Assembly: GCA_963924555.1 (NCBI GenBank)
Contig: OZ004591.1
Span: 186,001 to 250,000, forward strand
Reading direction: 5' to 3'
Source: Crambe crambe
Lineage: Eukaryota; Porifera; Demospongiae; Poecilosclerida; Crambeidae
DNA length: 64,000 bases
Position 1 is the first letter of the stretch. The number at the start of each line of letters is the position of its first letter. Below the pieces are notes generated by a model. That model made no database searches and was not told the origin of the DNA. It was given only the letters and a program-made list of their open reading frames with translations. Both the position numbers and the translations under genes were made by a program. Below are positions 2,409 to 64,000 of this stretch, piece by piece.

Positions 2409-2660
2409 AGTGAGGCAGATTTCTTGGACTCAGTAAGATCAGCCACAAGTTAGTTATGGGGATCAGGCGTTCACAGTAACGCCACACGCTCCTAGGGGTC
2501 ATTGTTGATACTATGAAGACTTTTCTTGTCAAAGAAAAAGGACGCGCGCGTACAATGCGCGCATATTTGTACGCATGCGCAGTGAAAATCGAAGGATAAT
2601 GGTAATAATTATGTGTACGTGGATAAATAGATAGAGAGTTAAGTGTTCAGCAGTCAATAG

Positions 2661-4378
<1,718 letters not shown>

Positions 4379-4656
4379 TTTTAGGCCGAGAAGATTGAGT
4401 TAGAGATAAGTCTTGAAGATAAGATTAAGAGAGAGACTTTTGCGACGTCAGTCACTCGAAAAGCTTCTGAAATTGGAAAATTGAAGTGAAATGCGGCTTT
4501 TTATTGCCGTGGTAATTGCGCGTGACCATACTGCGCATGCTCAAAATAATATTTTATACGCGCATGCGCGCAAGCTCTGAAGCAAGCAAAAAAGGGGAAA
4601 TATAAAAAGTACAGCCTACTCTCTACCTAATACTTTTAGTTCATGTCCGAAAGAGT

Positions 4657-6412
<1,756 letters not shown>

Positions 6413-6725
6413 TCTCGGTAGAGTAGTAGATCAATACAAAAAGGATACGATTATAGCTCCAGAGAGAGACTGTGCAACGATTGTCCGCTCAGAAGCTATT
6501 CAGGACTGTTAAAAAAAGTGTCAACTAAAAAACCATGGTTACATAATTAATGATTTCCTAATAAGGCACGCAACGGCCAATGCGCATGCGTGATAATATT
6601 CATCTGCTGACATAACATGTGTCCACTATGGTGTAAAATAGCAGCTGAACTATTTTTTAAGTGGTTATATGGATAAAACTAAAGAAAGTTACATGTTTAT
6701 GGGCTGAGCTAAGCATCAAGTTAAG

Positions 6726-8308
<1,583 letters not shown>

Positions 8309-20400: not shown

Positions 20401-20500
20401 GAGATGATGCAGTTGCAAAAGTACATCTAATCTTACATGTAGGGATTATTATTAAACCCAGCATAATCTTGTTTGCTCACAGAAACTGCTATAGGTAAAA
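17480..20500. other. Intergenic, mostly featureless; two exon-like fragments
   Basis: About 3 kb between the receptor stop and the NTPase gene. 17480-18190 is the receptor 3' region, duplicated at 28420-29012. It contains an inverted TACATTGTATATACATTG-type AT-rich stretch near 17967. A short open stretch at 18293-18364 encodes an acidic peptide (MAGGEMEDDEESIDSEDD and onward). Two diverged copies of a segment with ATCAAGATGTCCGGTGTACT lie near 19170 and 19500. A possible terminal exon is listed separately. I found no complete gene. Confidence 0.5.
19774..19879 (+). other. Orphan terminal-exon-like fragment
   Basis: After a good acceptor (tgttgcag) an open frame reads GVSQDDDVSELMGLSQDALD, continues DTDRPIWRVYQEIVG and stops at 19877-19879. 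Codon use and composition look coding rather than random. I could not find the upstream exon; the acidic open stretch near 18293 is a candidate. It may be a remnant gene or transposon fragment. Family not recognised. Confidence 0.3.
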
Positions 20501-20587
20501 CCCTACATGGCATTTTTATTTGAAAATTTTCATTATTACTGTTACGATTTCAACATCACAGCATTAACACAACAGCATAGTAACAGA

Positions 20588-21919: not shown

Positions 21920-21989
21920 TTAAGGCACATACTAACGTTCTTCCTAATGGAGTACTTAATACCCTTCTAGAAAGTAACTTTAAAGGCCG

Positions 21990-23400
21990 ATAATATGACA
22001 CTGAACACACTGCTTAATTTTCTCTCTATATTATGGTCAAAAGGCAATACTAGCAATTGTAATCTATTTTTTGCACGATTTCTAAATAGCATGGTATTAA
22101 CCAATATTTGTCATCAGATCAAACGTAACTAGGGCTAGCTGAGCAGCATGGATGTAGTCTGGCATAGCCACACCCCCGAGTGCGAGATGGTCTGGAAACA
22201 TTCAATATACCGAGTTGTCAGAAGTAGCAGAAAATCTGCTACTGCATGAATATCGTTACCTAACCACAGTGTGAACCAGTGTACACCACAGGCATGCACA
22301 GCAGTAAGCCAACACGTTTTTGCTGTGCTCCTAACTGGATTTGGGAAGAGATTGTGTTTTGCTGTCCTCCCTTTAGCTTTTGATAAACTTGTTACTTCTT
22401 TTCTATATCTGAGCCACAACCATAGCAGATATACGTATCTACATCTTTCCACTGCAGCTGCTGCTTTCCAGCATATAATCACATGTTTTTATTACTTTCC
22501 ACAATTACACAGCATGACCACCATAATGGAAATTCCAATCTGACAGCTTGCAGTATTTACCAGACTCTCCCCTCATGCTTGGGGCGCCAGGCTGCACCAA
22601 TCCAATCATGCTGCTTGTGCATTGAAGGCTGGTGATCATGAACCTACAACATAGCTCTAGCACTCACAACCTTTGTCAATTGAGGTTCCAGTTGACCTTC
22701 TCCTACTGGCTACACATTAAGTAAGACTAGGACACAGCTGTAGTTTGTTTCAGAAATTCTGGTAAGGATCATGAAATGTGCCCACACATGAGCAAGAAGC
22801 AAAAGGCTACATAGATATGTGCAGCTGAGTGGAGACACGAAGTTGTTTATCTCCCGAGGTACAAACCTTCAGCGCAGATCCAGAAGCAATTTCAAGCATG
22901 AGTGAACTGTCTGACTAACTAGCTAGAGAACTACTGCTCACCAGCTTGATCAGTGTTGTCTTTGAAAAAAAGCATGCTTTCTTTATAGCAGCCAAGAGGC
23001 AGAAAAGAGGCGTGGCCAAGAAGCTTGTACTACACTGACAGCTGGACAGTTTAAAAGATGCACCTGAACAGTTGAAAATCAGAATTAAATGATTTCGTTT
23101 TTTTAATCAATAACTTTTCAGTTGCTGTGCTTGTAGCCGTTTGAACTGTGGCTTGATCAAGACAGACAATTACTATAACCTTGCATATGCACTGAGGGTA
23201 TTCCCAAAGGGTATGACTTTCCAACTTGGTATCTCATTTTATAGAGTCCCATATAATTAAACATGCTAATTCATTGGAGTGAATAAAATTTACTCACTTA
23301 TCATGATGTTTGGAGAAACATCAGAAGCCATGGGAGCTCTTTGCCTAAAGGTTGTGGATGGTCAGTAATCAGCAGGAAAAAGCCAACAAGGGAACAGTCC
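21990..23400. other. Intergenic, no gene recognised
   Basis: I see only short random open frames, no splice-consistent exons and no tRNA. Composition is ordinary. Confidence 0.4.
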
Positions 23401-23434
23401 CACAGCAGGGCGGGAGGAAGACTAACTGCTATTA

Positions 23435-23580
23435 CACAATAAATATTTCAATTCAAGAGTAGCTAGCAATAAATCTCAAGTGTGACCGTTAGTAGTAGTG
23501 TAGCTAGCTACGGTTTGAACGCTTATGGGTCAGGAGACCGACGACAGAAACGAGCCGACGAGGGAACAAACTAGTCTGGC
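23435..23580 (+). repeat. Dispersed repeat, copy 1 (direct repeat with 25377-25520)
   Basis: Begins ATATTTCAATTCAAGAGTAG, includes GTGACCGTTAGTAGTAGTGT and ends in a GACGAGGGAACA segment. The same order recurs at about 25377-25520, and its second half recurs again at 25550-25635. No coding potential; belongs to the repeat complex at 23.4-26.8 kb. Confidence 0.8.
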
Positions 23581-23956
23581 ATCGCCAGCTCAGCTTTTCT
23601 TCTTTTTGGGGAAGAAAAGTGGTCTGGGAGCTCTAGCATTAACTACTTGTGACACCCGCGCGCTCTCTCAAAAATGATAGCAATAATACATGCGTGTTGA
23701 ATAATTTTCCGAAGCCAGTCGGTAGAATTGCCTTTGAAAATCGCTGATACAACTTCCAGCCGTTCAGGCTTCAGGCCAGGTATTCCTAGCTCTTTAAGCA
23801 CAGCTCTTGGTTACTTCTCCATAGCTGTAGCTCTGCCAACCTGGACTAAGTCGTGGGTGTGTCTCACCAACATTAATACTACTTCACGTGACTGAATAGA
23901 GCAATCTGATTGGCACGCAGCTATAGCTGTGCACGCAGGCGACACAAATAGTTGAT

Positions 23957-24866
23957 GCATGCATAGATATGAGGTTTTACGGGATTGGAAACGCCCAATG
24001 AACTGCACAACAGTGGCACATTGACAGATGCACACGCGCATGCAGCATTAATTATATTAATGGTCGTGAAAAGAGATCAATATTCACTCCTTTCAAGGCA
24101 ATTAAAGTGATGTTCTGCCCCTACAGCTCACAGAATAGTACAAGTAAGCTAAGGGGAAGGTATTGAAGAAGTGAAGAGTCAGAGAGCTGAAGTTGGAGAG
24201 TCTGAGGAAGGAAGTTATTAATTATTCATAATTTTTTTCCCTTATAATTATAACTATGAGTACCTATCATTAATTTTATGTGATTGATTTGAAAGAAAGG
24301 CCAGAATGACTTTTGGTATTAAAATTAGACATTATTATAGCTAGATAATTTGCCCCAAAGTTATCCGCCAGTTTCTGCCTCATCAGCATTATTGCAATAC
24401 TTCCAGCTTTGGATTTTGATACCATCCACCTCAAGAATTCGGCTCAGTCAGCTGTCCTGTGGACCCTATGGATATTAGGGGGGAAATATAGTAAGCTTGC
24501 CATCTCCATAGGATGACTATTGTATAGAAAACAAATGCACCAATTCCATTTACTGTTCTATCCTTTCCCTGAAATAACTAATACAGTTGCAATATTGTTA
24601 ATCTATTTCTTGGGAGAGGGATTACAGTTTTAATACCACTTGCAAATGCTAGAGACAATAATATGTCAGCTAATACAAAAACTAATATTACTATTCCATG
24701 TAGCTAAAGTTTACATGCCTTTTGATCAGAAAATGGGCAACAGCAATTGATTCCATCAAGCGTGAGAGGGAATACAGTCCCATTAACCACTACAGTAGTA
24801 TTTGTAGGAATAAACTTGAAGTTCTGAACTGAAATTTATTTCATACAGTAAATCTATGCCCTAGTG
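23957..24866 (+). repeat. Left arm of large inverted repeat
   Basis: About 0.9 kb whose reverse complement reappears at 25802-26757. It starts with CATAGATATGAGGTTTTACG and ends near GTAAATCTATGCCCTAG. The arms differ by scattered substitutions and small indels. Between them lies a 0.93-kb spacer holding another copy of the end motif and a MITE. Likely a foldback-type or decayed DNA transposon; no transposase frame seen. Confidence 0.85.
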
Positions 24867-25009
24867 TATTATAGTATCATTGGCATAAGTCTTACCTTAC
24901 GGATCTTGTCAGAACAGCAACTTTGACGAAAGTGCTTTGTCATTCAGCTGTCAACACGCCTCGGTTGTTAGTTGCTAACGAGAGCACGTGATCCATTTCC
25001 AATCCCATA

Positions 25010-25264
25010 CACAGCGAAAAATCTACAACTTGTAAGCATTCTGTAACAGGTATGTAAGAGAACAAAAATCCGTAAACCCTAGGCACCGGAAGTACTAATT
25101 TTTGATCTGTAGGCAGTTGGTGGGGCAGCAGGTCCGATACAGTCAAAAAATACGACCTGTTACAGACTTGTAGATTTTACTGACCCGTTACAGACCTGTG
25201 TACAGGTCATAACTGGTATGTGGGGCAGTCCAGACCTGTTACAAGTTGTAGATTTTTCGCTGTG
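25010..25264. mobile_element. 255-bp MITE with 25-bp perfect TIRs and TA target duplication
   Basis: The terminal inverted repeats are identical over 25 bp and begin CACAGCGAAAAATCTACAAC. The element is flanked by TA on both sides (25008-25009 and 25265-25266), as for Tc1/mariner-type insertion. Removing the element plus one TA rejoins a sequence that is the reverse complement of 25757-25797 with about two mismatches, so an unoccupied copy of the target exists in the same window. Non-autonomous: no open frame of note inside. Confidence 0.85.
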
Positions 25265-25376
25265 TAAACCTCTTATATCTATGATGCATGCTAGAGCCAC
25301 CAGATCACAAGCTGGGCTGGCGACGCCAGACTAGGAACAAACAGGAGCAGGAGAGAAACTGACAGCTATTGCATAA

Positions 25377-25660
25377 TAAAATATTTCAATTCAAGAGTAG
25401 CTAGCAATAAATCTCAAGTGTGACCGTTAGTAGTAGTGTAGCTTGTTCTATCTAGCTACGGTTTGAACGCTTACGGGTCAGGAGACGGACGAAACGAGCC
25501 GACGAGGGAACAGTCTCACAGCGGGCAGCAAGCAAACAGGAGCGGGAGACTACGGTTTGAACACTTACGGGTCAGGAGACCGATAACCGAAACAGGTTCA
25601 ACAGTCTCACAGCGGGCAGCAGGCAAACAGGAGGGAGACCACAATAAAATATTTTGGCTC
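25377..25660 (+). repeat. Dispersed repeat, copies 2 and 3
   Basis: 25377-25520 matches 23435-23580. A partial third copy (GGTTTGAACACTTACGGGTC, then CAGTCTCACAGCGGGCAGCA) follows at about 25553-25635. This forms part of the spacer of the large inverted repeat. Confidence 0.75.
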
Positions 25661-25801
25661 GGTTTTGCCTAAATTGAATGTCAGCACCAGGGACTGAACG
25701 GCAACACCATGTACCATGTACCAGAAGGCACGAGAATTGTGCGAGGGTTTTAGCATAGATATAAGAGGTTTACGGGATTGGAAACGGATCACGTGCTCAC
25801 G

Positions 25802-26757
25802 TGCTAGGGCATAGATTTACTGTATGAAATAAATTTCAGCTCAGATTTTCAAGTTTATTCCTACAAATACTACTGTAGTGGTTAATGGGACTGTAATCCC
25901 TCTCACGCTTGATGGAATCAATTGCTGTTGCCCATTTTCTGATCAAAAGGCATGTAAACTTTAGCTACATGGAATAGTAATGTTGGTTTTTGTATTAGCT
26001 GACATATATTGTCTCTAGCATTTGCAAGTGGTGTTAAAACTGTAATCCCTCTCCCAAGAAATAGATTAACAATATTGAAACTGTATTAGTTATTTCAGGG
26101 AAAGGATAGAACAGTAAATGGAATTGGTGCATTCGTTTTCTATACAATAGTCATCCTATGGAGATGGCAAGCTTACTATATTTCCCCCCTAATATCCATA
26201 GGGTCCACAGGACAGCTGACTGAGCCGAATTCTTGAGGTGGATGGTGTCAAAACCCAACAGCCAAAAGCTGGAAGTATTGCAATAATGTTGATGAGGGAG
26301 AACTGAGCAGAAACTGGCGGATAACTTTGGGGCAAAATTATCTAGCTATAATAATAAATGAATTTATGTCTAATTTTAATACCAAAAGTCATTCTGGCCT
26401 TTCTTTCAAATCAATCACATAAAATTAATGTATAATGAGCAATGATAGGTACTCATTGTTATAATTACAAGGAAAAAAGTTATGAATAATTAATAACTTC
26501 CTTCCTCAGACTCTCCAACTTCAACTCTCTGACTCTTCACTTCTTCAATACCTTCCCCTTAGCTTACTTGTACTATTCTGTGAGCTGTAGGGGCAGAATA
26601 TCACTTTAACTGCCTTGAAAGGAGTGAATATTGATCTCTTTTCACAACGATTAATAATAATTAATGCTGCATGCGCGTGCGCATCTGTCAACGCGCCACG
26701 GTTGTGCAGTTCATTCATTGGGCGTTTCCAATCCCGTAAAACCTCTTATATCTATGG
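25802..26757 (-). repeat. Right arm of large inverted repeat
   Basis: Reverse-complement partner of 23957-24866, ending in CCCGTAAAACCTCTTATATC. The end motif (reverse complement GATATAAGAGGTTTTACGGG) occurs at least four times in 23.9-26.8 kb in both orientations, so it is probably the true terminal sequence of the repeat family. The Ig pseudogene begins about 120 bp beyond. Confidence 0.85.
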
Positions 26758-26876
26758 TTTTAGGCGCGGCGCTAGGCCGTACTGCACTGATTTGTGACCT
26801 TTGCACTCCAGTGACTCAACTTACACAAGACCACGTACCACCAGTTCTATAAGTCTTACAGGTAGTTGGTCCCATG

Positions 26877-29012
26877 CAACTGTATGTTCCTTTTCTACTG
26901 TTTAGTTGCACCCAGTGTCTCTACCACACCATCTAGCCTCTGGCTCTGTGGCTAACTTCACGTACACAGCTACAGGAGACCACTCTCCTCAAATCAGGTG
27001 GCTCAGGCAGAACTCTGGGAGACCAGAGGATACAAGTTCAACCAGCCATAGGTGGGGGGTTGTCCCTGGTAATTAGAGACCTACAAGGAAATGATCAGCA
27101 ACAATATGTCTGTGAATCCAATGTGGCTTCCATGGATACTTCCACTGTTTCCCTGACAGTGCTAGGTCAGACCCTGTCGATGACATTATTTTTAGTGAAC
27201 TTTGATTTGAATTATTCTATTTTAGTGGCTCCAAGTGTGAACATCTCGGGGCAACTGAACGTGGTGCAGGGAAACCCACCAGTCAACTCGGGACAGTCTC
27301 TGCTAACACAACGCTCCAAGCTAGTCTATGGTATGTGACAACAAGGAATGATACAGAGTCACTATCTGACTGGTATAGCTGGCATGACAACTACTTTAAG
27401 CTGCACAGTTACTGGTGTTCCTGCTCCAATCCAAACTTGGACTCGAAATGGAATTGCTCCATCTGATTCTCGGTTCCAAATTTTGAATAATGGGAGCAAC
27501 TTGATCATAAGTGAAATACGGGAAGAGGACCAAGGGGAATACCGTTGCCATGCCTCCAACTCAGCAGGATCTGATACTGCTGTTGTTCGATTCAATGTCA
27601 TAAGTTAGTTATAAAGCTGTGCGTTCAATTTCTACTTCAAGTGTTTTCTTTCTTTCTTTCTTTCTTTCTTATTCTTTCATTCTTTTTGACAGGTATTCCA
27701 GTAGTTCAAGTTCCCATGGCGACAGTCATTGTTGTCCAGAGACCTAATGCTGTTTTAGATTGCCTGGCAATGGGTGACCCTGAACCCGTGGTTCGCTGAT
27801 TCTTCAACTCAATGCCAGTATCCATTTCTGCAAGCTCTCGCTTCCAACAGTCGTCCAATAACAGCCTCACTCTCTTCCAATGTGCAAACCACTGATAGAG
27901 GAACCTACACGTGCACTGCCACCAATGCTGCAGGCACCACCTCTGCCACCATACAACTCATAGTCTATGGTGAGGGACTGGATAGCCATGTTGTGGCCCC
28001 CATAAAGTATTTTATCACATCTGTTATTTGTTTAGTTGTTCCTGTGATAACAGTAATGGAGAATCCAGTGATAGCAGTGATAGGAAGAACTACTAGTCTG
28101 AGCTGCCTGGCTACTGGTGATCCCGCCCCAGTACAGACCTGGACACGTAATGGAGGAGCAGTGTCTGGCTCTAGAGTCCAGATCAGTGCTGACGGCAGCA
28201 ACCTGACCATCAGTGATGCAAGAGAAGAGGAGAAGAATGAGCAAGACGCTTCAGTAAACAGCGCCAAGCCTATGCCACTCCCACAAATGCAGGGATAAGA
28301 AACTTTAACCCCAACATGGGGATGTCATCTGGTGGGATACTGGAAACAAGAATTGGACAAGTGGGAATGGCAAGGAATGGAGGATTGCCCACTGTTCCTG
28401 AAGCAAATGCTCATATGTACTAGCTAAACTAACTACACTTACTATTGTAGAGAAACATTCTCAGGTCCTTAGTACACCATTTAATAGGAGCTTTGAGTGA
28501 GAATCTGATCATTCCAAAAACACTTCACACCCTTTCACAAGGCTAACACTCCACGCTATGAAACATATTTATCTCCTCATGATGTAATTTAATTTTCTGA
28601 ATGACACATTTTGAACCTTCCATAGTCGTCTAACAGCAGCACGTGTAATGACACATCAGAGCATCATTAAGAACACACAAACAAGTAATAGTTAAAAGTG
28701 ACTGTAGATAAGTGTTCCAGTGTTAGGGTTAACTACAGGATGATTCTGCAAGCATGTAATTATAATGTGCCTACATTGTATATACATTGTATATACAATG
28801 TAACAATGTATAATAATCGCACAAAAATTAAACAAAAAGTATAAAAATTAGCTAAAAGTATATATAACAGTTTTACAAAAGAGTTGTTAAGATATTAACC
28901 ATGGTGCGAGTTTTTACTGGGGCTTGAGAATGATGCAGTGTTGGCTGGTGGTTTGTTGAAGTGAATGAAAAAAAGAGTGATTTGTCAAAAAAGAAGAATG
29001 ACCAGTTGTTAC
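26877..29012 (+). pseudogene. Broken partial duplicate of the Ig/FN3 receptor gene
   Basis: A DNA-level copy of 11624-18190 with introns retained and large internal deletions. 26877-27170 matches the end of intron 8 plus exon 9. Exon 10 has lost its middle. Exon 11 and the start of exon 12 are gone (junction near 27367). Exons 12-14 follow with the CTTT-rich intron. At about 28230 the copy jumps from the end of exon 14 directly into exon 24, then continues through the stop and 3' region. In the exon-13 copy the domain Trp codon is TGA (27797-27799, GCTGATTC), and a 1-nt insertion at CTCTCTTCC (about 27870) shifts the frame. Cysteines around exon 9 are also altered. It cannot encode the receptor. 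Retained introns exclude retroposition. Confidence 0.9.
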
Positions 29013-46573: not shown

Positions 46574-48896
<2,323 letters not shown>

Positions 48897-51546
48897 AGAA
48901 TCGGCAGCTAACTAATTTTTATTTTATTTTTATAATTATAAGGTACAATTTCTTACAGTGGCCAAGTTTCATTTATCATCGCTTGTACTCACTTTAATTT
49001 ATGGATTATTAAAAAAAATAGAATGAAAAAAAATCCTCTTTATGATTGTTATTACCCATCATGCACTAGTTGATCTAGTGTTATTTTTATTAATTATATT
49101 GTTTAAAAAAAGAAAAGAAAAACATTCTGCAGTCAACATGGATGAAAATAGGTTATCCGTCTGGTTTTTTCATACTAGACTTGCACACATAACAGATTGG
49201 AGAGAGATTAGAGTGCTTCTCAACCCATTAATGAGTATTAATGAATATTAAAACAATTAACACTAATTGATAATATTCATAGCATGCCAAGGCACCCATC
49301 CCAGATAACTGGAGCAGTGTAGTAATGAATTACCCACTTTAGGCCCCCAGCTAGTGTAAACATTGGCTGGCCAGAGTCTTGGGTGTGACTTCCCCTCATC
49401 CCTGCTAACACCGCTAACATTACTGCAAGGAAGGGTGGGGTGGGTTAATCAACTTATCACTGTTTCCTGGTCTGTAAACAAATTGTTGGGAAATTATGCG
49501 TGGATGGTTATAGTGCAAGTGCATTGTTCTGGAGGATGTGTTGTCATAGGGGAGTTACAATGATTTTAATTGGATCATTCTATAGCCAGCACAGATATAA
49601 TTAGAACCATTATAGTCATAATGTGATTAAATGTTGCCATAAGGTTATGGGTAATCGAATGAGTAGGTGTGTCCCTCCAGACTGGCCCTGTTATGAAATT
49701 ATTACCTACTGAACATACACAACTGCAAAAATCCCATTCCATGGTATACACTATTAATAGAGTCCAGACTGAACTTGGCCACGATATAATTCCCACACTG
49801 AACCCACAAACATTCACACTTCATTTGCATCATTAATCAATTAATCTGCAGCTGTATGGCTGCATTTTTTGCATGCATTCTCTCATTATTAAGTCCACAC
49901 ATCACATTGATTCCCACATTAGGCTACAGGCATAATCATTTATGCTAGAGTGCCAATTATCAATTAATAATAATTATTATTTTACATGTCAGTTTGATAT
50001 TAATTATAGCGTAGGCATGACACTGCATTATGGTACTTGCTATATGTATCTCATTTGCATAAAATGAGAGAGGCCACATCACTATAGCAGAATACAATGC
50101 ATTGCAGCTAACTATAATATTATTGTGGATAGCTATAATTGTAATTTACATACTGCACTGTGCAGGATGTATATACTGCATGGATGGATTCAATCTATTG
50201 TAGTGACTCTAACCAGTCCAATTCAAAATCTCATTATCTCCTCTTGCCATCCATCTTGTAGGCCATTTCAGGATGGTTGGGAATAAGAAGTATGTAGTGG
50301 ACCTAAGCCATGCAGTTGTGTAAACCATGTAGATCCCCAAAACATTAACCTACCAAGTCCTTGAGAAATTTAATGTGAAACTAATTCATGCGGCATGCAT
50401 ACGACATGCGTGTTCATGCACGCATGTGGCATACAAAGTCCGTGCATTCCACGGACACCAAGTCATGAGTGCATGTGATAAAACATTCGACCACATAACA
50501 ATGGACAACGCTATACAGACAATAATGGAAGGCATCCATGCATGGAGGTGATCTCACCTAGCCGTGCAGGAAGATAATTGGATTACTCACCATGACCAGC
50601 TACAATAGAAGACAAAGAATGAGGTCACAGAGCCATTGCTAAAATATGATTAGAAAAAAAAACCTGAATTTGTAATTCGATTATGACTGCATACTTGAAC
50701 CCTTCTATTTCCAAACTCATAAGTTTTTCCAAATTGATAACATTTCAGGCATTCTAATTGGATTGGCGCTCCCTTATCAGACATCTGTCCCCAATATTGT
50801 CTAGTGCAGTATTCAATATCAAAAAAAATAGGAATGCAATCAACTCAGTTAAAGATACTACCACATTAGCCCCACACGCACAGGGACTTGGCCGGAAAAT
50901 CTAACCATAAGTGTACCACCTAGAAAAGGTACAGCAATTTCATCAGGCAAAGATTATATAATCTAGCAGGTGAAAGGTTGGTATCAGATGTTCCTTGAAT
51001 GTGACAGTATAGGAATAATTATTGAGATCACATGAACACGTGTCAGGACATGAAGAGCGGAGAAATTATATCAACCAAACCACAATTCAAATTACGATCA
51101 ATACACATCACCACTCCACTATGTGTGGAATGCTCTCAGCGATAGAAATCCTGCAATCTCAAGCCACTACTGATGATCACAACAGACAAACCCTACTGGC
51201 CGGAGCACACACACAACACCCAGAACCACCACATTGTAACCAGCTGCGCCATTCACTAAATTAATTCATTTTTAACTAGTAACAACATCAACTCATGTGT
51301 ACATTAAAAATAATTATTACATAAGAGTTTTATTATGAGGCATGCATGAATACTCAAAAAAAACAAAAAACAAAAAAAAAACACGAAACAAAACTCCATA
51401 ATAGCAAACAGCATAATTATAAATAAATCTGCATGTTAGTAACCACAAAAAGTATAGTTTTATATTGTGACCTAATAGAGAAAAAAAAAGTCCTCTAGGA
51501 TGGACCCCAGAAGATAGTACAAAGTTTTACCTGAACCTCTTCATCT
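48897..51546. other. Gene-free AT-rich DNA between homeobox gene and ARCN1
   Basis: 2.65 kb between convergent genes. Rich in TAAT/ATTA words, including TTAATCAATTAATC (49832) and a dense cluster near 49955-50000 (CAATTATCAATTAATAATAA). No exons or RNA genes seen. Candidate regulatory DNA of the homeobox gene (inference). Confidence 0.45.
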
Positions 51547-54500
51547 CTAAATAATTTCAAATTTTTCACCCGTGAAAAGAACTTCACTCGAGAACTTGAC
51601 TGGCTTGTTGGTTTCTGATAGAGTCACTGATGCCATCTGCATTACATTGAGGAAGGAAAGGAAGACTATTCATAATCATTGAAGCACCAGTACCACAGAA
51701 CTAAAGCAAAAACAGTGAAAATAGAGGTGGTATTTTTCATTTATTTTCAGCAATAAAATTATGAAGGTCCACTATTCTGTGTGCTAGTAGCGAGTAACCA
51801 AAGTATTAATGTCTGAGATTTCCCAGTGATAGGTAAGCTACTAACAATGGATTATCACTGTGGATGAACTAAATCACACCTACCACTGTTACATAACAAT
51901 GATGTAAGTAGTAGTAATGACGATAATAATAGATGATGATGATGATGATGATGTACCATATATCTCTCTCAAGTAAATATAGACAAGGAGGATAATAAAA
52001 GAATGCTATTATGTTCAAGGAATAATTCTAATTATTCCCACGTACCCACAATATGAGGGGGATAAAAGACCATGATTTATCGTATTATATTATATCGCTT
52101 TATATTCACCACAAAACAGATCAAGAATGCACTTGAAAATAGCACTCCCAAGGATGAGTGAGTCGGGAAGGAGGACCCAAAACAGATGGCGGGAGATTTG
52201 GAACAATTAGAGCAGAGCCATAAAGACCCTCTCACGTTTCAGGCCAACATAGGATAAGGTTGCAGCTTAATGGTTGCAATACTGTCACTTAGCAGACCAG
52301 TAACAAGATAGCCCATCTGAGAACTAAACCTTTTGAAGTGCCTAATGTGGCATCTCTTAAACTCCATGAAGTGGTCACTGGAGTGCTGACTTCTCTGGAA
52401 AAACGTTAAGAATGTGAACTCTCTTTCAACCCGGCTCATTTTTTTGGGTTAATTGGATTCATTGATGTCGGTAATTGCATGGCCTGTGATGAGAGATTAT
52501 GGTGAAAGGTTATGCAATCAAGATCCATTTCATGGACCAACTACCTTATTGAAATCTAATTGGTTAGTCGACTGGCCCTGCCCGCCACAATAAAAGCATC
52601 CTTAAAAATGCAATTTTGAGATGCAAAACACGTCCGCCATTCCTATCGGCACCTTTGCAACATCTGGCTAGCTCCCCGATCACTTTTATTGCCACCTGCT
52701 GGGCTCATTGGGATGCCCCACCTGCTGACTCAGCACCACATGATTGCACCCGCTAAGCCCCCTCATAGACAAAACTTATAAAATAACTTTATTATTGTTT
52801 TTCTAACAGAGTGAACACAATAACAAGCTAAATAGAGTAACATACGAGTTTATTTGCACTCAAATAATATTGTGAACACACACACCCCGGCAGACTGGCT
52901 ACTTGCTGCAGTGAAAATAATTCAGCCTTAATTTGATAGAGTGAAGCTATAATATGCCATTAGAGAGATTGTTTACAAGTGGTGGACAAGCAGTGGGCTT
53001 CACCAAGTACGATAGAGACTATGATAAAGGAGATGGTTGGTGTAGTGATAAAGGAGATGGTTGGTGTAGTGAAATTATGTAGCAACTCAAATATTTTCAC
53101 AGAAGGAACAGCATAATTACATTTTCCTCCCCTTCCTACAAAGATGAATGCTACTGTAGGAGTAATCACTTAACGGCTGCATGTATGTACATGTATTGAT
53201 ATGCCGGGACTACATGTGTTATGTGACATATTTTGTCCAGGAACAATTCAATGCATGCATGAGCAAGCTGAACGCCATTGGATCCAAGCAACCAATCCAT
53301 CCTCACTCATCAAGACTAATGAATCAAAGGATAGCAACCATTACTCAACTGCACAATCACGCAGAATGCTGCACACACAAAACTACCAAACAACACTAAT
53401 GGATGACGCTGAAACACTTCTGAGTATTCCAATAAGCCACCCAGCACATGTCATAAATTATAGCACTTGATCCTAGACTGCTTTGAAGTGTAAGCGATCA
53501 GAGAATTCCGAGGGGAATATACCACCCACTAACTTGCTCCGTCGGCAGCAGAGATGTTATGGATCATGGAACTCGCTCATTGGGAACATAGGAATGGGAA
53601 TGGATTTAATTGCATAAGGAATGAGAAACAAAGGCCCCATGAAAACAGACTTAAACTCGAGAGACATAGTCCACGGTGATTTTTCATTGATAGCTATGAC
53701 TACACACAGTGCAACAAGGACAAGTACAGAGTACGTATGTGGAACGTCAATGAGAGGCCTTGCTGATGAGATAAAAATAGATTGAGCATCAGCAAGATTT
53801 GGTCAGAGATATCCCAAACCCTATAACTGAAAACTGGCAATTTGGTCAGAGATATCCCAAACCCTATAACTGAAAACTGGCAATTTCCATAAATGCAAAA
53901 CAAAATAAAACAAAACAAAACAAAAAAACCAATTGTGCTAAGAATAGAATGGAATGGAGTCATGTAATGCAATGTTCCTGTGTACGTTTCCTGTTCATGC
54001 ATGTTGATAATTATGTGTCAGAATGACACACTTCCTGGTAGTATAAGATTTCATGGCTTTATTTTACTAACACAAATTATGGATTGATTAAAGTATGGAC
54101 CAACAAAGTAAAGAGGATTTCCTTATCATAATACAAGTATAGTTTAGAATCCATATAATCAGACATCGATTTCCTATACCTCATCAGTCGTCAGACCTAA
54201 ATTACATTCTCGAATGATGTGCATGATACTGGAACCCACATAAACCCCCCACACTCGTGGTTAATACCTTCTAGAGATTTCCCTGATTTCCCCATGCTAG
54301 GATAACTTTTAAACACAACATAACACATGATGCTTGAACCCACATAAACTGCACATACCCATGGCTAATGCTCGCTCTTACTTCCTTCCCCAATGCAAGG
54401 ACACAAGATGCTTGAATCGCACATACCCATGGCTAATGCTCGCTCTTACTTCCTTCCCCAATGCAAGGACACAAGATGCTTGAATCGCACATACCCATGG

Positions 54501-57500
54501 CTAATGCTCGCTCTTACTTCCTTCCCCAATGCAAGGACACAAGATGCTTGAACCGCACATACCCATGGCTAATGCTCGCTCTTACTTCCTTCCCCAATGC
54601 AAGGACACAAGATGCTTGAACCGCACATACCCATGGCTAATGCTCGCTCTTACTTCCTTCCCCAATGCAAGGACACAAGATGCTTGAACCGCACATACCC
54701 ATGGCTAATGCTCGCTCTTACTTCCTTCCCCAATGCAAGGACACAAGATGCTTGAACCGCACATACCCATGGCTAATGCTCGCTCTTACTTCCTTCCCCA
54801 ATGCAAGGACACAAGATGCTTGAATCGCACATACCCATGGCTAATGCTCGCTCTTACTTCCTTCCCCAATGCAAGGACACAAGATGCTTGAACCGCACAT
54901 ACCCATGGCTAATGCTCGCTCTTACTTCCTTCCCCAATGCAAGGACACAAGATGCTTGAACCGCACATACCCATGGCTAATGCTCGCTCTTACTTCCTTC
55001 CCCAATGCAAGGACACAAGATGCTTGAACCGCACATACCCATGGCTAATGCTCGCTCTTACTTCCTTCCCCAATGCAAGGACACAAGATGCTTGAATCGC
55101 ACATACCCATGGCTAATGCTCGCTCTTACTTCCTTCCCCAATGCAAGGACACAAGATGCTTGAACCGCACATACCCATGGCTAATGCTCGCTCTTACTTC
55201 CTTCCCCAATGCAAGGACACAAGATGCTTGAATCGCACATACCCATGGCTAATGCTCGCTCTTACTTCCTTCCCCAATGCAAGGACACAAGATGCTTGAA
55301 CCGCACATACCCATGGCTAATGTTCGCTCTTACTTCCTTCCCCAACGCAAGACACAAGATGCTTGAACCGCACATACCCATGGCTAATGCTCGCTCTTAC
55401 TTCCTTCCCCAATGCAAGGACACAAGATGCTTGAACCGCACATACCCATGGCTAATGTTCGCTCTTACTTCCTTCCCCAACGCAAGACACAAGATGCTTG
55501 AACCGCACATACCCATGGCTAATGCTCGCTCTTACTTCCTTCCCCAATGCAAGGACACAAGATGCTTGAACCGCACATACCCATGGCTAATGCTCGCTCT
55601 TACTTCCTTCCCCAATGCAAGGACACAAGATGCTTGAACCGCACATACCCATGGCTAATGCTCGCTCTTACTTCCTTCCCCAATGCAAGGACACAAGATG
55701 CTTGAACCGCACATACCCATGGCTAATGCTCGCTCTTACTTCCTTCCCCAATGCAAGGACACAAGATGCTTGAACCGCACATACCCATGGCTAATGCTCG
55801 CTCTTACTTCCTTCCCCAATGCAAGGACACAAGATGCTTGAACCGCACATACCCATGGCTAATGCTCGCTCTTACTTCCTTCCCCAATGCAAGGACACAA
55901 GATGCTTGAACCGCACATACCCATGGCTAATGCTAGCTCTTACTTCCTTTCCCTATGCAAGGATACATAACTGATGTGTATGATGTAAGAACCCACAAAG
56001 TTAAAAACAACGGAAGTAACAACACTCTTACTAGATTCATTTGTACATTTATACATTTATATTTATACTCATTAACGATAGATCAGGTGTTGAGATGCTA
56101 AATCTATGCTGCCAGAACCCACAAGATCAGACATAATTACACTTGTACGGCCAGAGACAAGAGACATGGGACACTATTGCTGCCTGCCTGGGGAGACTGT
56201 AATGTAAGACTCCAGGACCAACACAAATAGACTTAATGGCTCTGAGCCCACCCACACAGGATTTCCTTCTTTCTCTCTCTCTCTCTTTTTTAAATTACAC
56301 ATACCATCTGTACACAAGCAGTGTCAGTATGTACCTGCATCCACAATGCATGCCGGCACCCACACACAGAGAGACTCTTTGATATCAACAACAGACAGCA
56401 AAATTTATACCTTACTTTATAAGGCCTAATATTAACACTCCAACCCACAGAATTGTACAGGATTTCCTCAGTCTATCATCATTGATTGTACACGTTTGCA
56501 CAATACAGAACCAACAAGTGATGGCCGGCAGTATTCATTCTGCATGCTTCCATACATGCAATACCACTGAGCAAGATCACACAGTACAGACACTTCAATC
56601 CATAAAATCTAATACCAGAACGTTCTATTTCCATACAATACATCCAATGCTGAATCAACAAAAAACAGAGGTCACCATGCTTTCATGTAATACCACTGAG
56701 ACATAGATACTTGAATCCATAAAATCTAATACCAGAACGTTCTATTTCCATACAATACATCCAATCAACAAAAAACAGAGGTCATAACTGAATGTCACGA
56801 CTCCTATAAATAATTGAACATGTCATCATGCTAGTTATAGAACTAGCTAGTTCTGAACATCATGCCTGGAAATCAAGTGAAACCCACACAAGCTGGCTTA
56901 CACAATGCCAAAAGACAATACACATAGACTTATTTGAAGACGAGGTCAGAATCAACAGAGAGAGACAGGGCGAATGGAATACTCCCAAGGAAGTAGCAGG
57001 TTTGGCAAGCAACTCAGACTTGCTCAATTCAGATGCTATTATTATTACACATTCAAGCTCATGTGAGTGGGCCCAGCTGTACCTAAAAGTCTTCTGTTGA
57101 ACTCTTAATTGTACAACATTACTTAATGCTGTTGAAATGACACTACTTACACAGGCCTCAGCCAGGCATTGTAAGTAACTGATTAATTGGATCAAGGACG
57201 GGCCATATTAGATTAGCGTACTATTTGAGTGTTCATTTGTTCAAAATACTAGTATTATAGGCCGAAGCCCCAGGCTATCTGTTGGCACACAAGGACATGT
57301 TCGGGTATTACAACTGTGCAGTAGTTGTGCAGATAGACATAATCCATCATGGTGTCAGGCCTGTACTGGTGATCCACCATATATGAAGCAGGGAGGTCAC
57401 CCTATTGCAACTGTTTCTTATATGCATGGACTGCAAGCCTGAGAGTGATGCTTTCCCAATCTGCAAAGAAGACTGGAATGCTACTTTCCCTTATCCAGAG

Positions 57501-58549
57501 AGCAAACCAGAACTATGCTTTCCTTCTTGTCATTATTACACAACTCTCATCATGCACATGTTATTTGCAGAGAGAGACCTTACTCATAAATATGCCGTCT
57601 GATATAGCTTGCCTCTTCCAGACTCCAACTTGTACAAGTGCTGAATGTGATGCCATTTTGGCCCTCACATTTAGCAGATTTCCACACTTCATCCCTACTG
57701 GTAAATATCCTGTCACTAGTCCATCATCAATTTGCTTCCAAGTGGTACTAATGTGTCCTCTGTCCCTGCTGTGACTCAATGACCTTGAATCATAGATCAG
57801 TAGCAAGCCAGTGTGGCGAGATCCAGACAGAGGCATGGTCGACTGCACACCCATTATCTCACCATTTCTCATCATTTATCAGCATTCAAATTTCCCAATC
57901 AGAGTGGAGTAGGTCTAACCACTAAACCAAACCACCACACACTAGTCAGTGTGATTGGGCTTATTAGCAGCTGCTTAGAGGTTGGCAGGGCAACCACCTA
58001 CAGCCTCTTATCTCCGACCCATTTCAAATTTTCAGACCAGTAGCATAGGTATGTGGCCCAAACACACAACATTCATCTTCAATACAGCAATTTAAGATTA
58101 ACATAGTCACGTAATGTGCATTTGTTGAATTAGACTTAATTCAGGAACATACTTATCTCCATGATTCACTGATGCTCAACTTAGCTATTTGTGTTCACTT
58201 GATCCCCTGATCATTCATTGTTTCTCAATTCTTAACCAAATTTCAAATTCACTCCTAGAGCAGCTCTCTCCTGGTGCTTTAATGTGAAATTTGGTCAAGA
58301 ATTGAGAGATTTAGAGCAGATATAGTGAATGATCAAGTGCTTACCTCAATATTGCAGTAAGACTTGGAGGACAGGAAGGAGACTTTAATTGGGAAGAAAT
58401 CGCTGGGGATGGCAGCAATGGAGAACTCCATACTGCCTTCCTTGGTGGAGGCATCCACCATAGGAAGTCTCCAGTTGAGACAGTGTTTCTTTGGCTCGTA
58501 GTTGTAGTCCCCATCTACCTCCCCTACCACTGGAGCTCCCACACCTGAC
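51547..58549 (-). CDS. ARCN1: Coatomer subunit delta (archain), last two exons
   Basis: COPI coat subunit for Golgi-to-ER vesicle transport. Two exons of the C-terminal mu-homology domain are visible: 58549-58345 (205 nt, entering in phase 2 and leaving in phase 0) and 51636-51547 (90 nt including TAG). The first encodes SGVGAPVVGEVDGDYNYEP, then RLPMVDASTKEGSMEFSI, DFFPIKVSF and KSYCNIE. The second encodes MASVTLSETNKPVKFSSEVL and ends GEKFEII. Both match the end of animal delta-COP, whose final residues follow the same pattern (…KYEIL). Upstream exons are not in view and must lie beyond 58.6 kb or outside the window. The joining intron is 6.7 kb, about a hundred times the typical intron here. 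Confidence 0.9.
51637..58344. other. 6.7-kb last intron of ARCN1
   Basis: No further exons were recognised on either strand. Besides the 68-bp minisatellite it holds small tandem duplications: GATAAAGGAGATGGTTGGTG twice (53023-53070); a roughly 42-bp unit GGTCAGAGATATCCCAAACC twice (53800-53885); a roughly 90-bp unit with AATACCACTGAG and CCAGAACGTTCTATTTCCAT twice (56560-56785); and a GAT microsatellite (51932-51952). AT-rich with many TAAT cores. Confidence 0.7.
54329..55970. repeat. 68-bp minisatellite, 24 copies
   Basis: The core CCCATGGCTAATGCTCGCTC recurs exactly every 68 bp from 54358 to 55920 (23 intervals, two of them 67 bp). Copies are nearly identical; they differ mainly at GAA(T/C)CGC, while two copies have GTTCGCTC with a one-base deletion (AACGCAAGACAC). 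The unit length is not a multiple of three, so reading frames rotate. Flanking partly similar segments (TTGAACCCACATAAAC, 54240-54345) look like the ancestral unit. Confidence 0.97.
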
Positions 58550-61500
58550 CTGAGGGGGCAGAGAAAAAACACCAGGGGGGTTATCATTAAGTGGTATATG
58601 GTGCAATACAAATAAGCACATCAAATTTTGAAAATTTGGGGATTTGAAACAAGGCAGATTCAGCAATGAAAGAATATCACACGAGTGGGGGTTAGTTTAA
58701 TATCATGATGCTACTGCAAGAAACTGTTACAGTTACGCGTTTCACTTGGAAAAGCTCGTTGGAACAGTCCGATATACGGTGACACTGTCCTATGACTGAA
58801 ATTTTTTGAGTCAGAGTAGTTAGTGGAAGAGTTTATACTTTATTTCATGTGCTAATGGTGAAGTATTGGAACTAATGCTTCCCATTATGACAATTCACAT
58901 GCTTTCACAAGCACACACCAAACAAGAGAAAACAGAGTAGCTGAAACAAGGAGTAAGAGGTCACATGGAGAGGCAGACAGCACTTGGCAATGTAAAGCAC
59001 TGCACATCAATCATCAATCAATGGCCATGAAGATGTAGTAGATAAGGGCTAGGGATTGAGATGAGATGCTGAATGGCCAGCTAATGGCTAGTAAAGGAAG
59101 ATTACATCCAGCAAATGATCTGATAGAATGTGATTGAAAGAATGGAGAGAATGGAACAAGTATGTACACTCGCATGTCTTCACTCCCATCCAATCACTTC
59201 TCACACATTTCTCCAGTTGATGACTCTCAGTCCTTGAACAGCTCTTTTTTTCTTTTCTCTTAGAGGATTATTAATAGTGCACCAGATGTTCGCCTAATTA
59301 AAGCCACTGAAGGCACACTAAAGCACTGTAGGCAATTCACAGCATGAATTCCACATGAATTCCACATACACCAAAGTAAACCATAGAGGACACATGCTTA
59401 AAACTCAGTAATAACAGGATCCACTCTATGAAACCTGCTTACTGCGACCTTTGTACCATATAATTACAGGGAGAAATGTTAATGAGGGGCTGCCTGCCGC
59501 CTGTAGACACCTTCTTATGCAAACACATTATCATTAGCCACAAGAATTAGCACCCACAGACAAAGCAGTGACCTCCAACCTCATTAAATGGCCTAATTCT
59601 CTCTTAATGTGATTTGGAGAACGACATGCCACATAATAGAAAGAGGCTGTGGTGGTAATAGTGCCTACCCAAGGGAAAAATGCACTCCAGTCGACAACTA
59701 TGGGACACTCTAGAACATGTGGTACCAGTTGCAATAGAGTTAAATTATAGTGCAATTTACAAGTGGCTAATCCATGAGCAGCCAGTTGTGACTTGCTTGG
59801 CTTCATTGTGAGGGGGAGGAGTTAATAGCCGTACAAGTGATCGTTACCTCATCAAATATGGCCACAGTTGGATAGGAATCAAAATCCCTCCACCTCACCA
59901 AATATGACCACAGTTAGTTGGATAGGAATCAAAATCCCTCCACTTCACCAAATATGACCACAGTTAGTTGGATAGGAATCAAAATCCCTCCAGCAACCAC
60001 AATACTTCATTGGGGTGGAATCCCTCTAAATAAACTGTTGGGTAAAACCCTGCTAATCAAACTTTCAACTTTTACTCCATTAGCATCACTACTCTAATTT
60101 AAACCTTCAAAATTAATAAGGTCATCCTTCTACCTAATTAGAGCATTAATTCTAGTCCATAGTTGACAAGTCAGCAGCTCTCCTTCCACACTTAGCAGTG
60201 ATACTTAACGAGGCAACAGCTTAATGAGATAATTGAGTGAGGAATTGTTATGGTGCCTGGGGGTCAACAAAAACGCTGGAGGGACTGCACTACCAGACGA
60301 CACAACGAACACTCCACTAATCACATCACAACAGTCTCATCCAGAAAAGCTTTTCTATATCACATGCAACACTAGACTGCAAGGACATCCTGAAGTGTGC
60401 ATGATAGTGTTATTTCTCTCCCAGTGTTTATCCTGATATTTCCTAGCAGCACCCTAATGGGTATCCCGAAATGGATATCTTGAGAAGGTTCTGATGGGTA
60501 TTTTGAGATGTTCTGATGGGTATCCTGAGACATGTTCTGATGGGTATCCTGAGATATGTTCATGATATCTTCTGACGGGTATCTCGAGACATGTTCTGAT
60601 GGGTATCTTGAGATATGCCCTAATGGAGGTTTATGTTACACTTGAAGGTTTTGATGATGTGGTGTCCTATTGAATTGCAGCAGTGAGCTCTCTGGAGAAA
60701 GGTCTAGATTTACAGTTAATGGGTGAGTGATTGCTTTGATGACTAGGTGGGGAACTCTTTGAGGGAATCAACAAGCTGGTTCAGTCTTCTAATGGAGAGT
60801 CATTACACCCATTCTGAACATACTTGCAATTCTTATTTTCCTTTATGACGCAACCGATGCACGGAATTACTTAAACAATTTTTGTAACTGACTCTCTCTC
60901 TCTCTCTCCTTTGCGGTAAGAATCTCTTTCTCCTCCAAACTTTGAAAAACGGAGAGATGTAGAGTGAACTGGAAGATGGAGGTGGGAGAGGAAGATGGGG
61001 CTGGGGAGTGGAGGTCCTCTTAAGATGGTATGCAGTGGCATTCTTATAAAGGTACCAATATCAAATAACAACAGATGTTTTGGCAAGCTTCAAATCTGAT
61101 GACTAGACTGCTTCATAACTTATCGCATTATTGCAATTGGTTGGACTTTCCATAATTGATGAATGCATAAGCCAATTAATTTGCTAGCCCATTCCATTAA
61201 TGCACTGACAATAAGAGGTACACTTTAACAATGAGATTAATCCATTCCATACTTTAATAATATAAGGAGAATTCCATACTTTAATACATGTAAGAATAAT
61301 TATATGAGGAGACTAATAACTTCATTATATGGTCACACCATGAGTCTAGAATGTAACCCTAGCAACCACATGGCAATATTAATTAAAGTACATAATTATT
61401 ACACTACATGATTTATTGTAAGCATTTTCCACATTACTAATACAATACATGGAAACAAAGTGTCAATATTTGTCAAATATGGTCCTCTTAAGATCGTTGG

Positions 61501-64000
61501 CAATTGAAAGGATAGCTCTAGGAAAGTATGATTCTTTGACTGTGGCCTTATTAGCCAGAGCCTCCGTGCTACGACATTATTATGATAATGAAGCTAAACA
61601 CATCATAGCAACCTCAGTCTATCCTCATTACGCATGATAATGAGATCTAGCATAGTGACGCCTAGAAACGGAGTTATTACAATGCTGATACAATGACAAC
61701 AACAGAGCAGTCTAACTAATACCATACATAGCAACAAAGCTTGACAATTGCACTGCACTATGGCTGCCTTCAGGTATGCAGAATTCTATTTTTAATATTA
61801 CAACCTCAGAACTCCTAATTTTCCTGTCGTGGCCAGACATATGTTGAACCAACAAAGAACTAAACGTCACTATGTGTCACATTAAATCGTCTTCCACATT
61901 AAACACACAAAATAAGTTGGAAATTGAATAAGAAGTGGGATCAGGTGATTGGACAGGATGTATGAGCATCCCAAACAGGTCTAGTCGGACCATATTTACC
62001 TTCAATGGAAGCATGATTCTCCTTCCCTGCAACTAACACCCTGTTAAAATGTAACAACACGAACCTTGTTTACCAGCATTTCTCCACCACAAGTTATTGG
62101 CGTCATCAACCAGTTGTCTTATCTGCACCACCAAGGGAAGCAGTCTTTCCCGAATACACCACACCACAACCATATTCTCTGCACTGAAGTTACAGTGAGC
62201 ATGACCTGAACTGCAGAGCGCTGAAATCATTATTTAATGTGGAATCATTATTTACCCTGAGGGAAGCACAAGTCCAAGGGTTAGGAACGCTCAGCACAAT
62301 GTGATCGACATAATATTAACCCCGGACCAATAATATTTACCTCCAGGGAAGACCGATGCTCTACAGAGCTAATATGAATATCACTCTGCTAATAATATTT
62401 TTAATCACCACTGAATGCTGTTTATTTACACACACGAGCTAAGTGTCAAACCACACACTTCGTAGATGCTGCACCACAAGCATGCCGATTACACGTATTT
62501 GCTCACAAGCGACTGCATGGATCAGCCAAATTAGATTTCCTATTAAAATAGGTAGTGAGTGCAATTCCAGTCAGTCTCCTGCTCAGACTGAACCCCTAGA
62601 TCCAGCACGTTTTGTTGGTGTCAATATCTTTAGGCAGTTGATGATCACCAAACCAAAATTGCTGTACGGTACCATGGTAGCTACCTATGCCAGTCACTCT
62701 TTCCCACATCTGACATCACCAATTGCAATCAAAGCAATCGCATGTCTGTCTGTCTGCCTCCAGCACTTTCCTACTTAAAAGATATGATAAAACAGACCAT
62801 GATAAACCCTTAAAATTTTTTGACTCGTTTGGTAGTGCCGATGGGTCTATGAGGAAATAAGAAAACCCCCTCAGTGTCCACACGTCTGGGACAAGTCCCA
62901 TCCAAGGTTCTTCAAATTCATTTGATCCATATGTTGTGATCTCATCATTCTGACCTTGCCTCAGGCCATTGTCACCTGATTAATTGCCTCAGGTCACATT
63001 CCAACGTCCACCAATTAATCGGATTAGTGGAGGTATTAATTGAGTTATAACTACCACAGCCTGAGTCAACTGTAGCATCAGTCCTGTCTGCCTGCCAGGT
63101 TTCTCTAGTAGATTGCTGAAGCTACAAGGGCTCCTGAAGGGCTGCTAAGGGGCTGAAGAAGGGCTACGAAGAGCTACATGCTGCAGAGGCCATGAGAAAA
63201 ATAGAAATATAATTTTTGGTAAACATTTTTCTTACCTAGAAATTCCATTCCTGGAATATTAAATGATGCAGTTAGGCACCACAACAAACAAAATAACACG
63301 ACTGAAGCACACATCACCTTGATAACAAACCACAAAATAAATAATCCAGCAGGGCAGGTTGGTTGGTGCTGACCAGAGCCAGACACACAGACGTAAGCAT
63401 TGGCAGCCACAGAAAGACTGAAAGTTACAGAACAGGGAACAACAGGCCATTTTGTACAAGGAGAGGAAGAGACGACACAACCAAGTGAGTGGTCAGGCAG
63501 AGACAAAGAGGAACTAAGCGAGTGGTCAGGCAGAGACAAAGAGGAACTAACAAGGGACAGACTACATTAACGAGGATGATATCACATTAATTAAGTTCAG
63601 TCATCATTTGTCTTAGGACAATGGATCATGTCTTAAATTCCCCCTGAAGGAATCAGTTTGCTAATTGCAGAATGCAATTATTGCTCAGTAGGAGTGAGTA
63701 TGATGAGTCTGGTGAAGAGATGAACTCACACTAATTCAATTGACCATCTGACTATAGGATGCAAGTGATACATTACTGGAAAATTGTGATATCGAGTGCA
63801 CTTGGTGGGTCTAGTGTGTATTAACTATAGGATGCAATTAGCTATTGTTATGATGCTGTAACAATGTGTACCAGTATGCCTTGCATCACTAGCAATTTTT
63901 GGTGGGTCTGCAAACTCAAGAATAACTGAATCAGCTGTATTTATAACAAATACAGGAAGACAAGAAAAACACAACTTGATGGGTCTAGTGGAAGGAATAA
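58550..64000. other. Gene-free AT-rich DNA, probably ARCN1 introns and flank
   Basis: No exon could be assigned. Contains three copies of a roughly 45-bp unit (AGTTGGATAGGAATCAAAAT) at 59850-59995; a degenerate roughly 21-24-bp tandem array TTCTGATGGGTATC(C/T)TGAGA at 60455-60620; (CT)n at 60890-60907; and a two-copy 34-bp unit (GAGTGGTCAGGCAGAGACAA) at 63483-63550. TAATTA-type words are frequent (for example 63012-63042). Confidence 0.5.
60455..60620. repeat. Short-unit tandem array (about 21-24 bp)
   Basis: Seven or so degenerate copies of TTCTGATGGGTATCCTGAGA with spacing of about 21-24 bp. On the minus strand this reads as a repetitive SQDTHQN-type peptide, which is a repeat artefact and not a gene. 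Confidence 0.85.

What the first reader, a model, noticed from the sequence alone, without database searches (positions are those of the whole stretch)
48897..64000. Genomic-regulatory-block-like desert around a homeobox gene, with ARCN1 as bystander
Everywhere else genes are spaced by 40-400 bp and most introns are under 150 nt. Beside BarBsh there are 15 kb with only two ARCN1 exons, and the ARCN1 last intron is 6.7 kb, AT-rich and full of TAAT/ATTA cores. A developmental gene flanked by a housekeeping gene whose introns host its enhancers is the classic regulatory-block pattern, reported in sponges for other loci.
Basis: inference. Interest (0 to 1): 0.7.

Follow-up and report, generated by a model that had tools for sequence, protein, structure and literature searches.

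The report
Possible homeobox control region in ARCN1
Next to a Bar/Bsh-type homeobox gene in a compact animal genome, a housekeeping gene carries two giant, mostly unique introns, and the densest clusters of homeobox-protein binding cores in the sampled DNA lie here, making it a plausible but unproven developmental control region.

Summary
The gap is real. After the single-exon Bar/Bsh-type homeobox gene (47859-48896) the window holds only two detected coding exons, the last two of ARCN1 (delta-COP), on the other strand. ARCN1 runs to at least 70.25 kb; two neighbouring introns are 6.7 and 7.2 kb against a 69-nt median for predicted introns. The stretch matches almost nothing else in the genome, shows no other coding sequence, and contains a 1.6-kb minisatellite.

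The last intron is neither unusually AT-rich nor rich in ATTA/TAAT, and gene spacing elsewhere is 1-9.7 kb in my (coarse) models.

A better signal lies beside it: the two densest 500-bp ATTA/TAAT clusters in 334 kb are both here, at 49.5-50.0 kb (homeobox 3' flank) and 61.1-61.6 kb (the other giant intron). Of 136 tetramers only ATTA behaves so.

A regulatory block with ARCN1 as bystander is plausible; the published sponge pair Isl-Scaper appears linked in this genome too. Conservation, chromatin and cross-species synteny, which define such a block, could not be tested. A Bar-like paralogue elsewhere has no such gap, and an NK-pair gap has no ATTA excess.

The parts
47859..48896 (+). Bar/Bsh-type homeobox gene, single-exon CDS, 345 aa; presumed target gene
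   Evidence: Open frame; Pfam Homeodomain 2.3e-22; best PDB relatives 'BarH-like 1' (2dmt) and 'BarH-like 2'; homeodomain 41/60 identical to human BSX as recalled, highest of seven recalled
48897..51546 (.). Convergent intergenic stretch, including the unmapped 3' UTRs of both genes; 63.5% AT, 33 ATTA/TAAT per kb
   Evidence: two short weak matches elsewhere in the genome
49528..50027 (.). Densest ATTA/TAAT cluster in 334 kb (31 in 500 bp); candidate element 1
   Evidence: 0 of 200 order-2 simulations reach it; rank 1
51547..51636 (-). ARCN1 last coding exon
   Evidence: tblastn with recalled human ARCN1; spliced frame intact
51637..58344 (-). ARCN1 last intron, 6,708 nt; ATTA/TAAT at background
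   Evidence: few matches elsewhere (51641-54340, 56000 onward)
54347..55967 (.). Minisatellite, 68 bp x 23.9 copies, inside the last intron
   Evidence: a 201-bp piece matched at this locus only
58159..58337 (.). Short dispersed repeat (MITE-like by my reading) within 10 bp of the penultimate exon's donor site
   Evidence: Dozens of places listed; 40 of 524 candidates scored
58345..58549 (-). ARCN1 penultimate coding exon
   Evidence: PDB coatomer delta 2.2e-26
58550..64000 (-). Window part of ARCN1 penultimate intron, 7,162 nt in all (to window-equivalent position 65711)
   Evidence: no other dispersed match in the part searched, to 64000
61139..61638 (.). Second densest ATTA/TAAT cluster in 334 kb (28 in 500 bp), inside the ARCN1 intron; candidate element 2
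   Evidence: 0 of 200 order-2 simulations reach it; rank 2 at 500 bp, tied second at 200 bp

Best explanation
The 3' flank of the Bar/Bsh-type homeobox gene and the two giant 3' introns of its convergent neighbour ARCN1 most likely hold cis-regulatory elements for the homeobox gene, with ARCN1 as an unrelated host. The two leading candidates are the homeodomain-core clusters at 49.5-50.0 kb and 61.1-61.6 kb. Homeodomain proteins, perhaps including the gene's own product, would bind there and act on the presumed promoter near 47.8 kb from about 2 and 13 kb away, by proximity rather than stable looping, which was absent in the one sponge mapped by Micro-C. Shown: gene layout, intron sizes, low copy number, absence of other detected coding sequence, the clusters. 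Inferred: regulatory function, target gene, promoter position and binding proteins.
For: Introns of 6.7 and 7.2 kb against a 69-nt median. Few matches elsewhere in the genome, unlike two other large gaps nearby that hold many dispersed repeats. No other coding sequence found. The top two 500-bp ATTA clusters of 334 kb are both here, uniquely among 136 tetramers, and 0 of 200 simulations reach either. ATTA has the largest excess of any tetramer against control non-coding DNA, 301 vs 209 expected; CAATTAA occurs 13 times vs 3.9 expected. Precedent: in Amphimedon, enhancer-like elements lie in Scaper introns beside Isl (PMC5429095, section 12). Islet-type homeodomains and SCAPER_N lie within 30 kb of each other in this genome.
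Against: The last intron has no ATTA excess. The C15 NK gaps are not enriched and the C19 Bar-like gene has no gap. At a 200-bp scale the intron cluster only ties for second with a place elsewhere, and the third 500-bp peak, 23, lies elsewhere. TAAACG, a Bar-type site as I recall it, is not enriched (1 vs 2.1), and the leading hexamers are a mixed lot. No CpG-rich peak marks either cluster. In Amphimedon, introns with enhancer-like elements are only modestly long (median 99 vs 71 bp, PMC5429095 passage). In Ephydatia the 243 distal elements are mostly intergenic, median 3.8 kb from a TSS (PMC12221973 section 7), so an element 13 kb away in a neighbour's intron would be unusual. No conservation or chromatin data. 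ATTA is a short, promiscuous core.
Confidence: 0.42

Rival explanations
1. The introns simply grew neutrally by minisatellite expansion, insertions and drift, and ARCN1 tolerates this; the ATTA clusters are chance or composition.
For: A 1.6-kb minisatellite and a dispersed repeat sit in the gap. Other large gaps exist without a known homeobox gene: of five exon-to-exon gaps over 6 kb in 264 kb, three are elsewhere, one of them mostly single copy.
Against: Tandem arrays and the dispersed repeat make up only about a sixth of 48897-64000 (summed). The cluster signal is specific to ATTA among 136 tetramers.
Confidence: 0.26
2. Only the homeobox gene's own 3' flank is regulatory (the 49.5-kb cluster); the ARCN1 introns are long for unrelated reasons, so there is no bystander arrangement.
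For: The strongest enrichment is in the flank (33 per kb) and the last intron has none; sponge distal elements lie close to TSSs.
Against: The second-ranked 500-bp cluster of 334 kb lies inside an ARCN1 intron.
Confidence: 0.2
3. The intronic elements regulate ARCN1 itself or an intronic non-coding transcript.
For: They lie within ARCN1; long introns can hold a gene's own enhancers (general knowledge).
Against: Housekeeping genes seldom need homeodomain input (general knowledge); no Rfam family at the gathering score and no tRNA in the window.
Confidence: 0.08
4. Undetected small exons or a lineage-specific gene fill the gap.
For: Short exons score weakly; ARCN1's own exons were near or below background in the coding scan, and Pfam caught only one of its two exons here.
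Against: No other Pfam match in six frames; no coding score in 48897-65710 above the simulated background.
Confidence: 0.04

Closest known systems
Isl-Scaper microsyntenic pair in the sponge Amphimedon queenslandica (PMC5429095; section 12 and passages read)
   Same: Homeobox gene beside a functionally unrelated gene, some of whose introns are far above the genome's usual length
   Different: There, histone marks show enhancer-like elements and the pair is conserved across many animals; neither is shown here. Here the neighbours are convergent.
Genomic regulatory blocks of vertebrates and insects (PMC2688929, PMC5585340; passages read)
   Same: Gene-poor stretch around a developmental regulator; bystander with large introns
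Distal cis-regulatory elements of the sponge Ephydatia muelleri (PMC12221973; section 7 and passages read)
   Same: The flank cluster, 1.7-2.2 kb from the start codon, is within their usual distance range
   Different: Those were mostly intergenic and defined by accessibility and H3K4me1; none mapped here

Membership tests
Genomic regulatory block | Target gene is a developmental transcription factor | tested here: met
   Pfam Homeodomain and Bar-type best PDB matches; its developmental role is inferred from family
Genomic regulatory block | Functionally unrelated bystander gene in the block | tested here: met
   ARCN1/delta-COP; its 3' half is matched at this locus only, frame intact over the five 3' exons spliced. 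That it is unrelated in function is general knowledge
Genomic regulatory block | Low gene density or long bystander introns | tested here: met
   Introns 6.7 and 7.2 kb vs median 69 nt
[quoted passage not shown]
   No relatives of this genome are held
Genomic regulatory block | Target-bystander synteny kept across species | not testable with these tools
Human ARCN1 and BSX both lie at 11q23-24 by recall only, megabases apart: a lead, not a test
Genomic regulatory block | Elements act as enhancers of the target, not the bystander | not testable with these tools
   Needs ATAC-seq, histone marks, reporters
Bar/Bsh (Barx/Barhl/Bsx) homeobox family | Homeodomain closest to Bar/Bsh members | tested here: inconclusive
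   PDB top matches BarH-like 1, then BarH-like 2; 41/60 to BSX, 38 to BARX1, 37 to BARHL1, 34 to MSX1 and less to the others, against recalled human sequences, one of which (HHEX) was evidently out of register; no tree built

The most novel reading that the evidence does not exclude
An early-branching-animal regulatory block in which a Bar/Bsh gene drives itself through homotypic homeodomain-site clusters, one of them hidden in an intron of ARCN1, and in which the loose linkage of ARCN1 and BSX in humans (recalled) is a relic of the same ancient arrangement.
Probability: 0.08. Interest if true: 0.8.

Novelty: new member of a known kind. Interest (0 to 1): 0.42.

Why it matters
Dozens of conserved gene pairs with enhancer-like signatures are already listed for the sponge Amphimedon (43 of 60, PMC5429095), with Isl-Scaper the worked example. 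Whether this pair is on that list was not checked. If confirmed, this locus would add a case with small, sequence-defined candidate elements, two of 500 bp, at which distal gene control in early animals without stable chromatin loops could be tested directly.

Tried and rejected
Coding content: hexamer scan, home-made gene finder (the first version, merged genes and was replaced), six-frame Pfam: nothing found but ARCN1 in the gap. The second gene finder itself misjudged this locus, joining ARCN1 exons to a false exon at 48.1 kb over an 18-kb intron; ARCN1 was therefore placed by homology.

Repeat origin: not supported for most of the gap, whereas the gaps at 17480-27131 and C14:430834-437601 hold many dispersed repeats ('transposon' is my reading). 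The search tool warns that it skips simple repeats and very common words, so lack of a match does not prove rarity.

'Any homeobox gene here sits in a gap': rejected; in the 20 kb seen around the C19 Bar-like gene, predicted genes lie close on both sides and predicted introns are at most 544 nt (the finder did not call the homeobox gene itself). 'Homeobox gaps share ATTA enrichment': rejected for the C15 NK gaps. CpG islands as marks of open elements: no peak at either cluster. Rfam and tRNA: none. DNA search of plasmids with the homeobox gene: none.

Limits: control non-coding DNA comes from my own gene models and part lies in a tandem gene array, so its blocks are not independent. The gene finder penalises long introns and may under-call them. 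Four introns of 5 kb or more were set aside. Control stretches overlapping two repeat-rich gaps were dropped. The desert set leaves out exons, the minisatellite and 58131-58581. A tree of homeodomains was not built.

Full report
The window is C14:186001-250000 of a 143.1-Mb genome in 119 contigs. The genome gives 30 matches to the homeodomain model, a lower bound, and CpG is depleted (observed/expected 0.30-0.39 in the C14, C15 and C19 stretches sampled).

Anatomy. The homeobox gene is a single-exon CDS at 47859-48896 with a clear homeodomain whose nearest solved relatives are named BarH-like 1 and BarH-like 2. Against seven human homeodomains recalled from memory (one, HHEX, out of register) it is closest to BSX (41 of 60), while its C19 relative is closest to BARHL1 (38 of 60). 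ARCN1 is convergent with it. Exact splice joins give introns of 6,708, 7,162, 894 and 2,093 nt between the last five coding exons, with an intact frame. The 3' half of ARCN1 is matched at no other place in the genome. Beyond ARCN1, compact genes resume: a PUS7L/TruD-like gene (two sub-threshold but concordant matches) and, by recalled resemblance only, a fibrillarin-like gene.

How unusual. A home-made gene finder over 314 kb predicted 484 introns, median 69 nt, 90th percentile 298 nt. After setting aside 4 of 5 kb or more, 6 of 480 reach 1 kb and 2 exceed 2 kb, one of which is an ARCN1 intron. Among exon-to-exon gaps in the 264-kb C14 stretch, five exceed 6 kb: the two ARCN1 introns and three others. 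Of those three, two hold many dispersed repeats and one is mostly single copy (8.3 of 9.4 kb searched).

What fills it. DNA searches of the whole genome with 46580-51545, 51641-54340 and 56000-64000 found themselves, 12 short matches (one of about 200 bp at 77%, the rest under 70 bp), and one dispersed repeat at about 58159-58337. The tool skips simple repeats and very common words, so this does not prove rarity; 64001-65711 was not searched. A 68-bp minisatellite of 23.9 copies fills 54347-55967, and a 201-bp piece of it was matched nowhere else. Six-frame Pfam found only the ARCN1 penultimate exon.

Homeodomain cores. In unique non-coding DNA of the gap ATTA/TAAT occurs 21.3 times per kb against 14.8 in control non-coding DNA of nearly the same AT content (60.5 vs 59.5%). 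It has the largest excess of the tetramers (301 vs 209 expected); in 500-bp blocks, 28 against 75, p=0.009, optimistic because blocks are not independent. Leading hexamers are mixed. CAATTAA is over-represented (13 vs 3.9), TAAACG is not (1 vs 2.1). The excess is not in the last intron. It lies in the flank (88 vs 66 expected; the flank is 63.5% AT) and the penultimate intron (144 vs 111). The two top 500-bp clusters in 334 kb, 31 at 49528 and 28 at 61139, are both here; the next are 23. Neither was reached in 200 order-2 simulations of its own segment. With windows of 300, 500, 800 and 1000 bp both stay on top; with 200 bp the second ties with a place elsewhere on C14. Running the 500-bp ranking for all 136 tetramers on repeat-masked sequence, only ATTA has both top clusters in this gap; six others have one.

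Controls that cut both ways. An NK-type pair on C15 borders a 20-kb coding-poor gap; the 8 kb of it searched is mostly single copy, but the C15 gaps are not ATTA-enriched (47 blocks). The Bar-like gene on C19 lies among close neighbours with small introns (20 kb seen). Two Islet-type homeodomains (my reading of the sequence) lie 17 and 30 kb from a SCAPER_N match on C19, so the pair of the published sponge case appears linked here; its introns could not be fetched.

Literature. In Amphimedon, 43 of 60 conserved gene pairs contain adult enhancer-like signatures, with Isl-Scaper the prime example (PMC5429095, section 12). In Ephydatia chromatin loops were absent and 243 distal elements lay a median 3.8 kb from TSSs (PMC12221973, section 7). 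I found no paper joining ARCN1 with a homeobox neighbour: ARCN1 with BSX gave none, BarBsh with sponge none, and in a third search none of the 20 papers listed of 139 held ARCN1. The Amphimedon pair list itself was not seen.

Verdict. The gap and giant introns are genuine, and the homeodomain-core clusters are a specific, unexpected support for a regulatory reading. Membership in the class of genomic regulatory blocks stays untested on its defining features.

Noticed in passing
54347-55967: 68-bp minisatellite of 23.9 nearly identical copies inside the ARCN1 last intron, a 201-bp piece matched at this locus only; its unit carries a TAAT core.
   Followed up: partly
23962-25013 and 25804-26758: Two inverted ~1-kb copies of a dispersed element with dozens of 92-99% identical copies genome-wide, suggesting recent transposition.
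   Followed up: partly
58159-58337: Short dispersed repeat within 10 bp of the ARCN1 penultimate exon's donor site.
   Followed up: no
949-7898, minus strand: Tandem tubulin genes: Pfam Tubulin and Tubulin_C for one, three more by similar ORFs.
   Followed up: no
L030-L032 (C15:5044354-5064495): 20-kb coding-poor gap beside an NK-type homeobox pair; the 8 kb searched is mostly single copy; not ATTA-enriched.
   Followed up: partly
L035, L036 (C19:1346101-1359000): Two Islet-type homeodomains near a SCAPER_N match at C19:1376237: the Isl-Scaper linkage appears kept, with two Islet-like genes.
   Followed up: partly
C14 about 309-410 kb (L013-L023): Large tandem array of near-identical exons resembling extracellular-domain repeats.
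   Followed up: no
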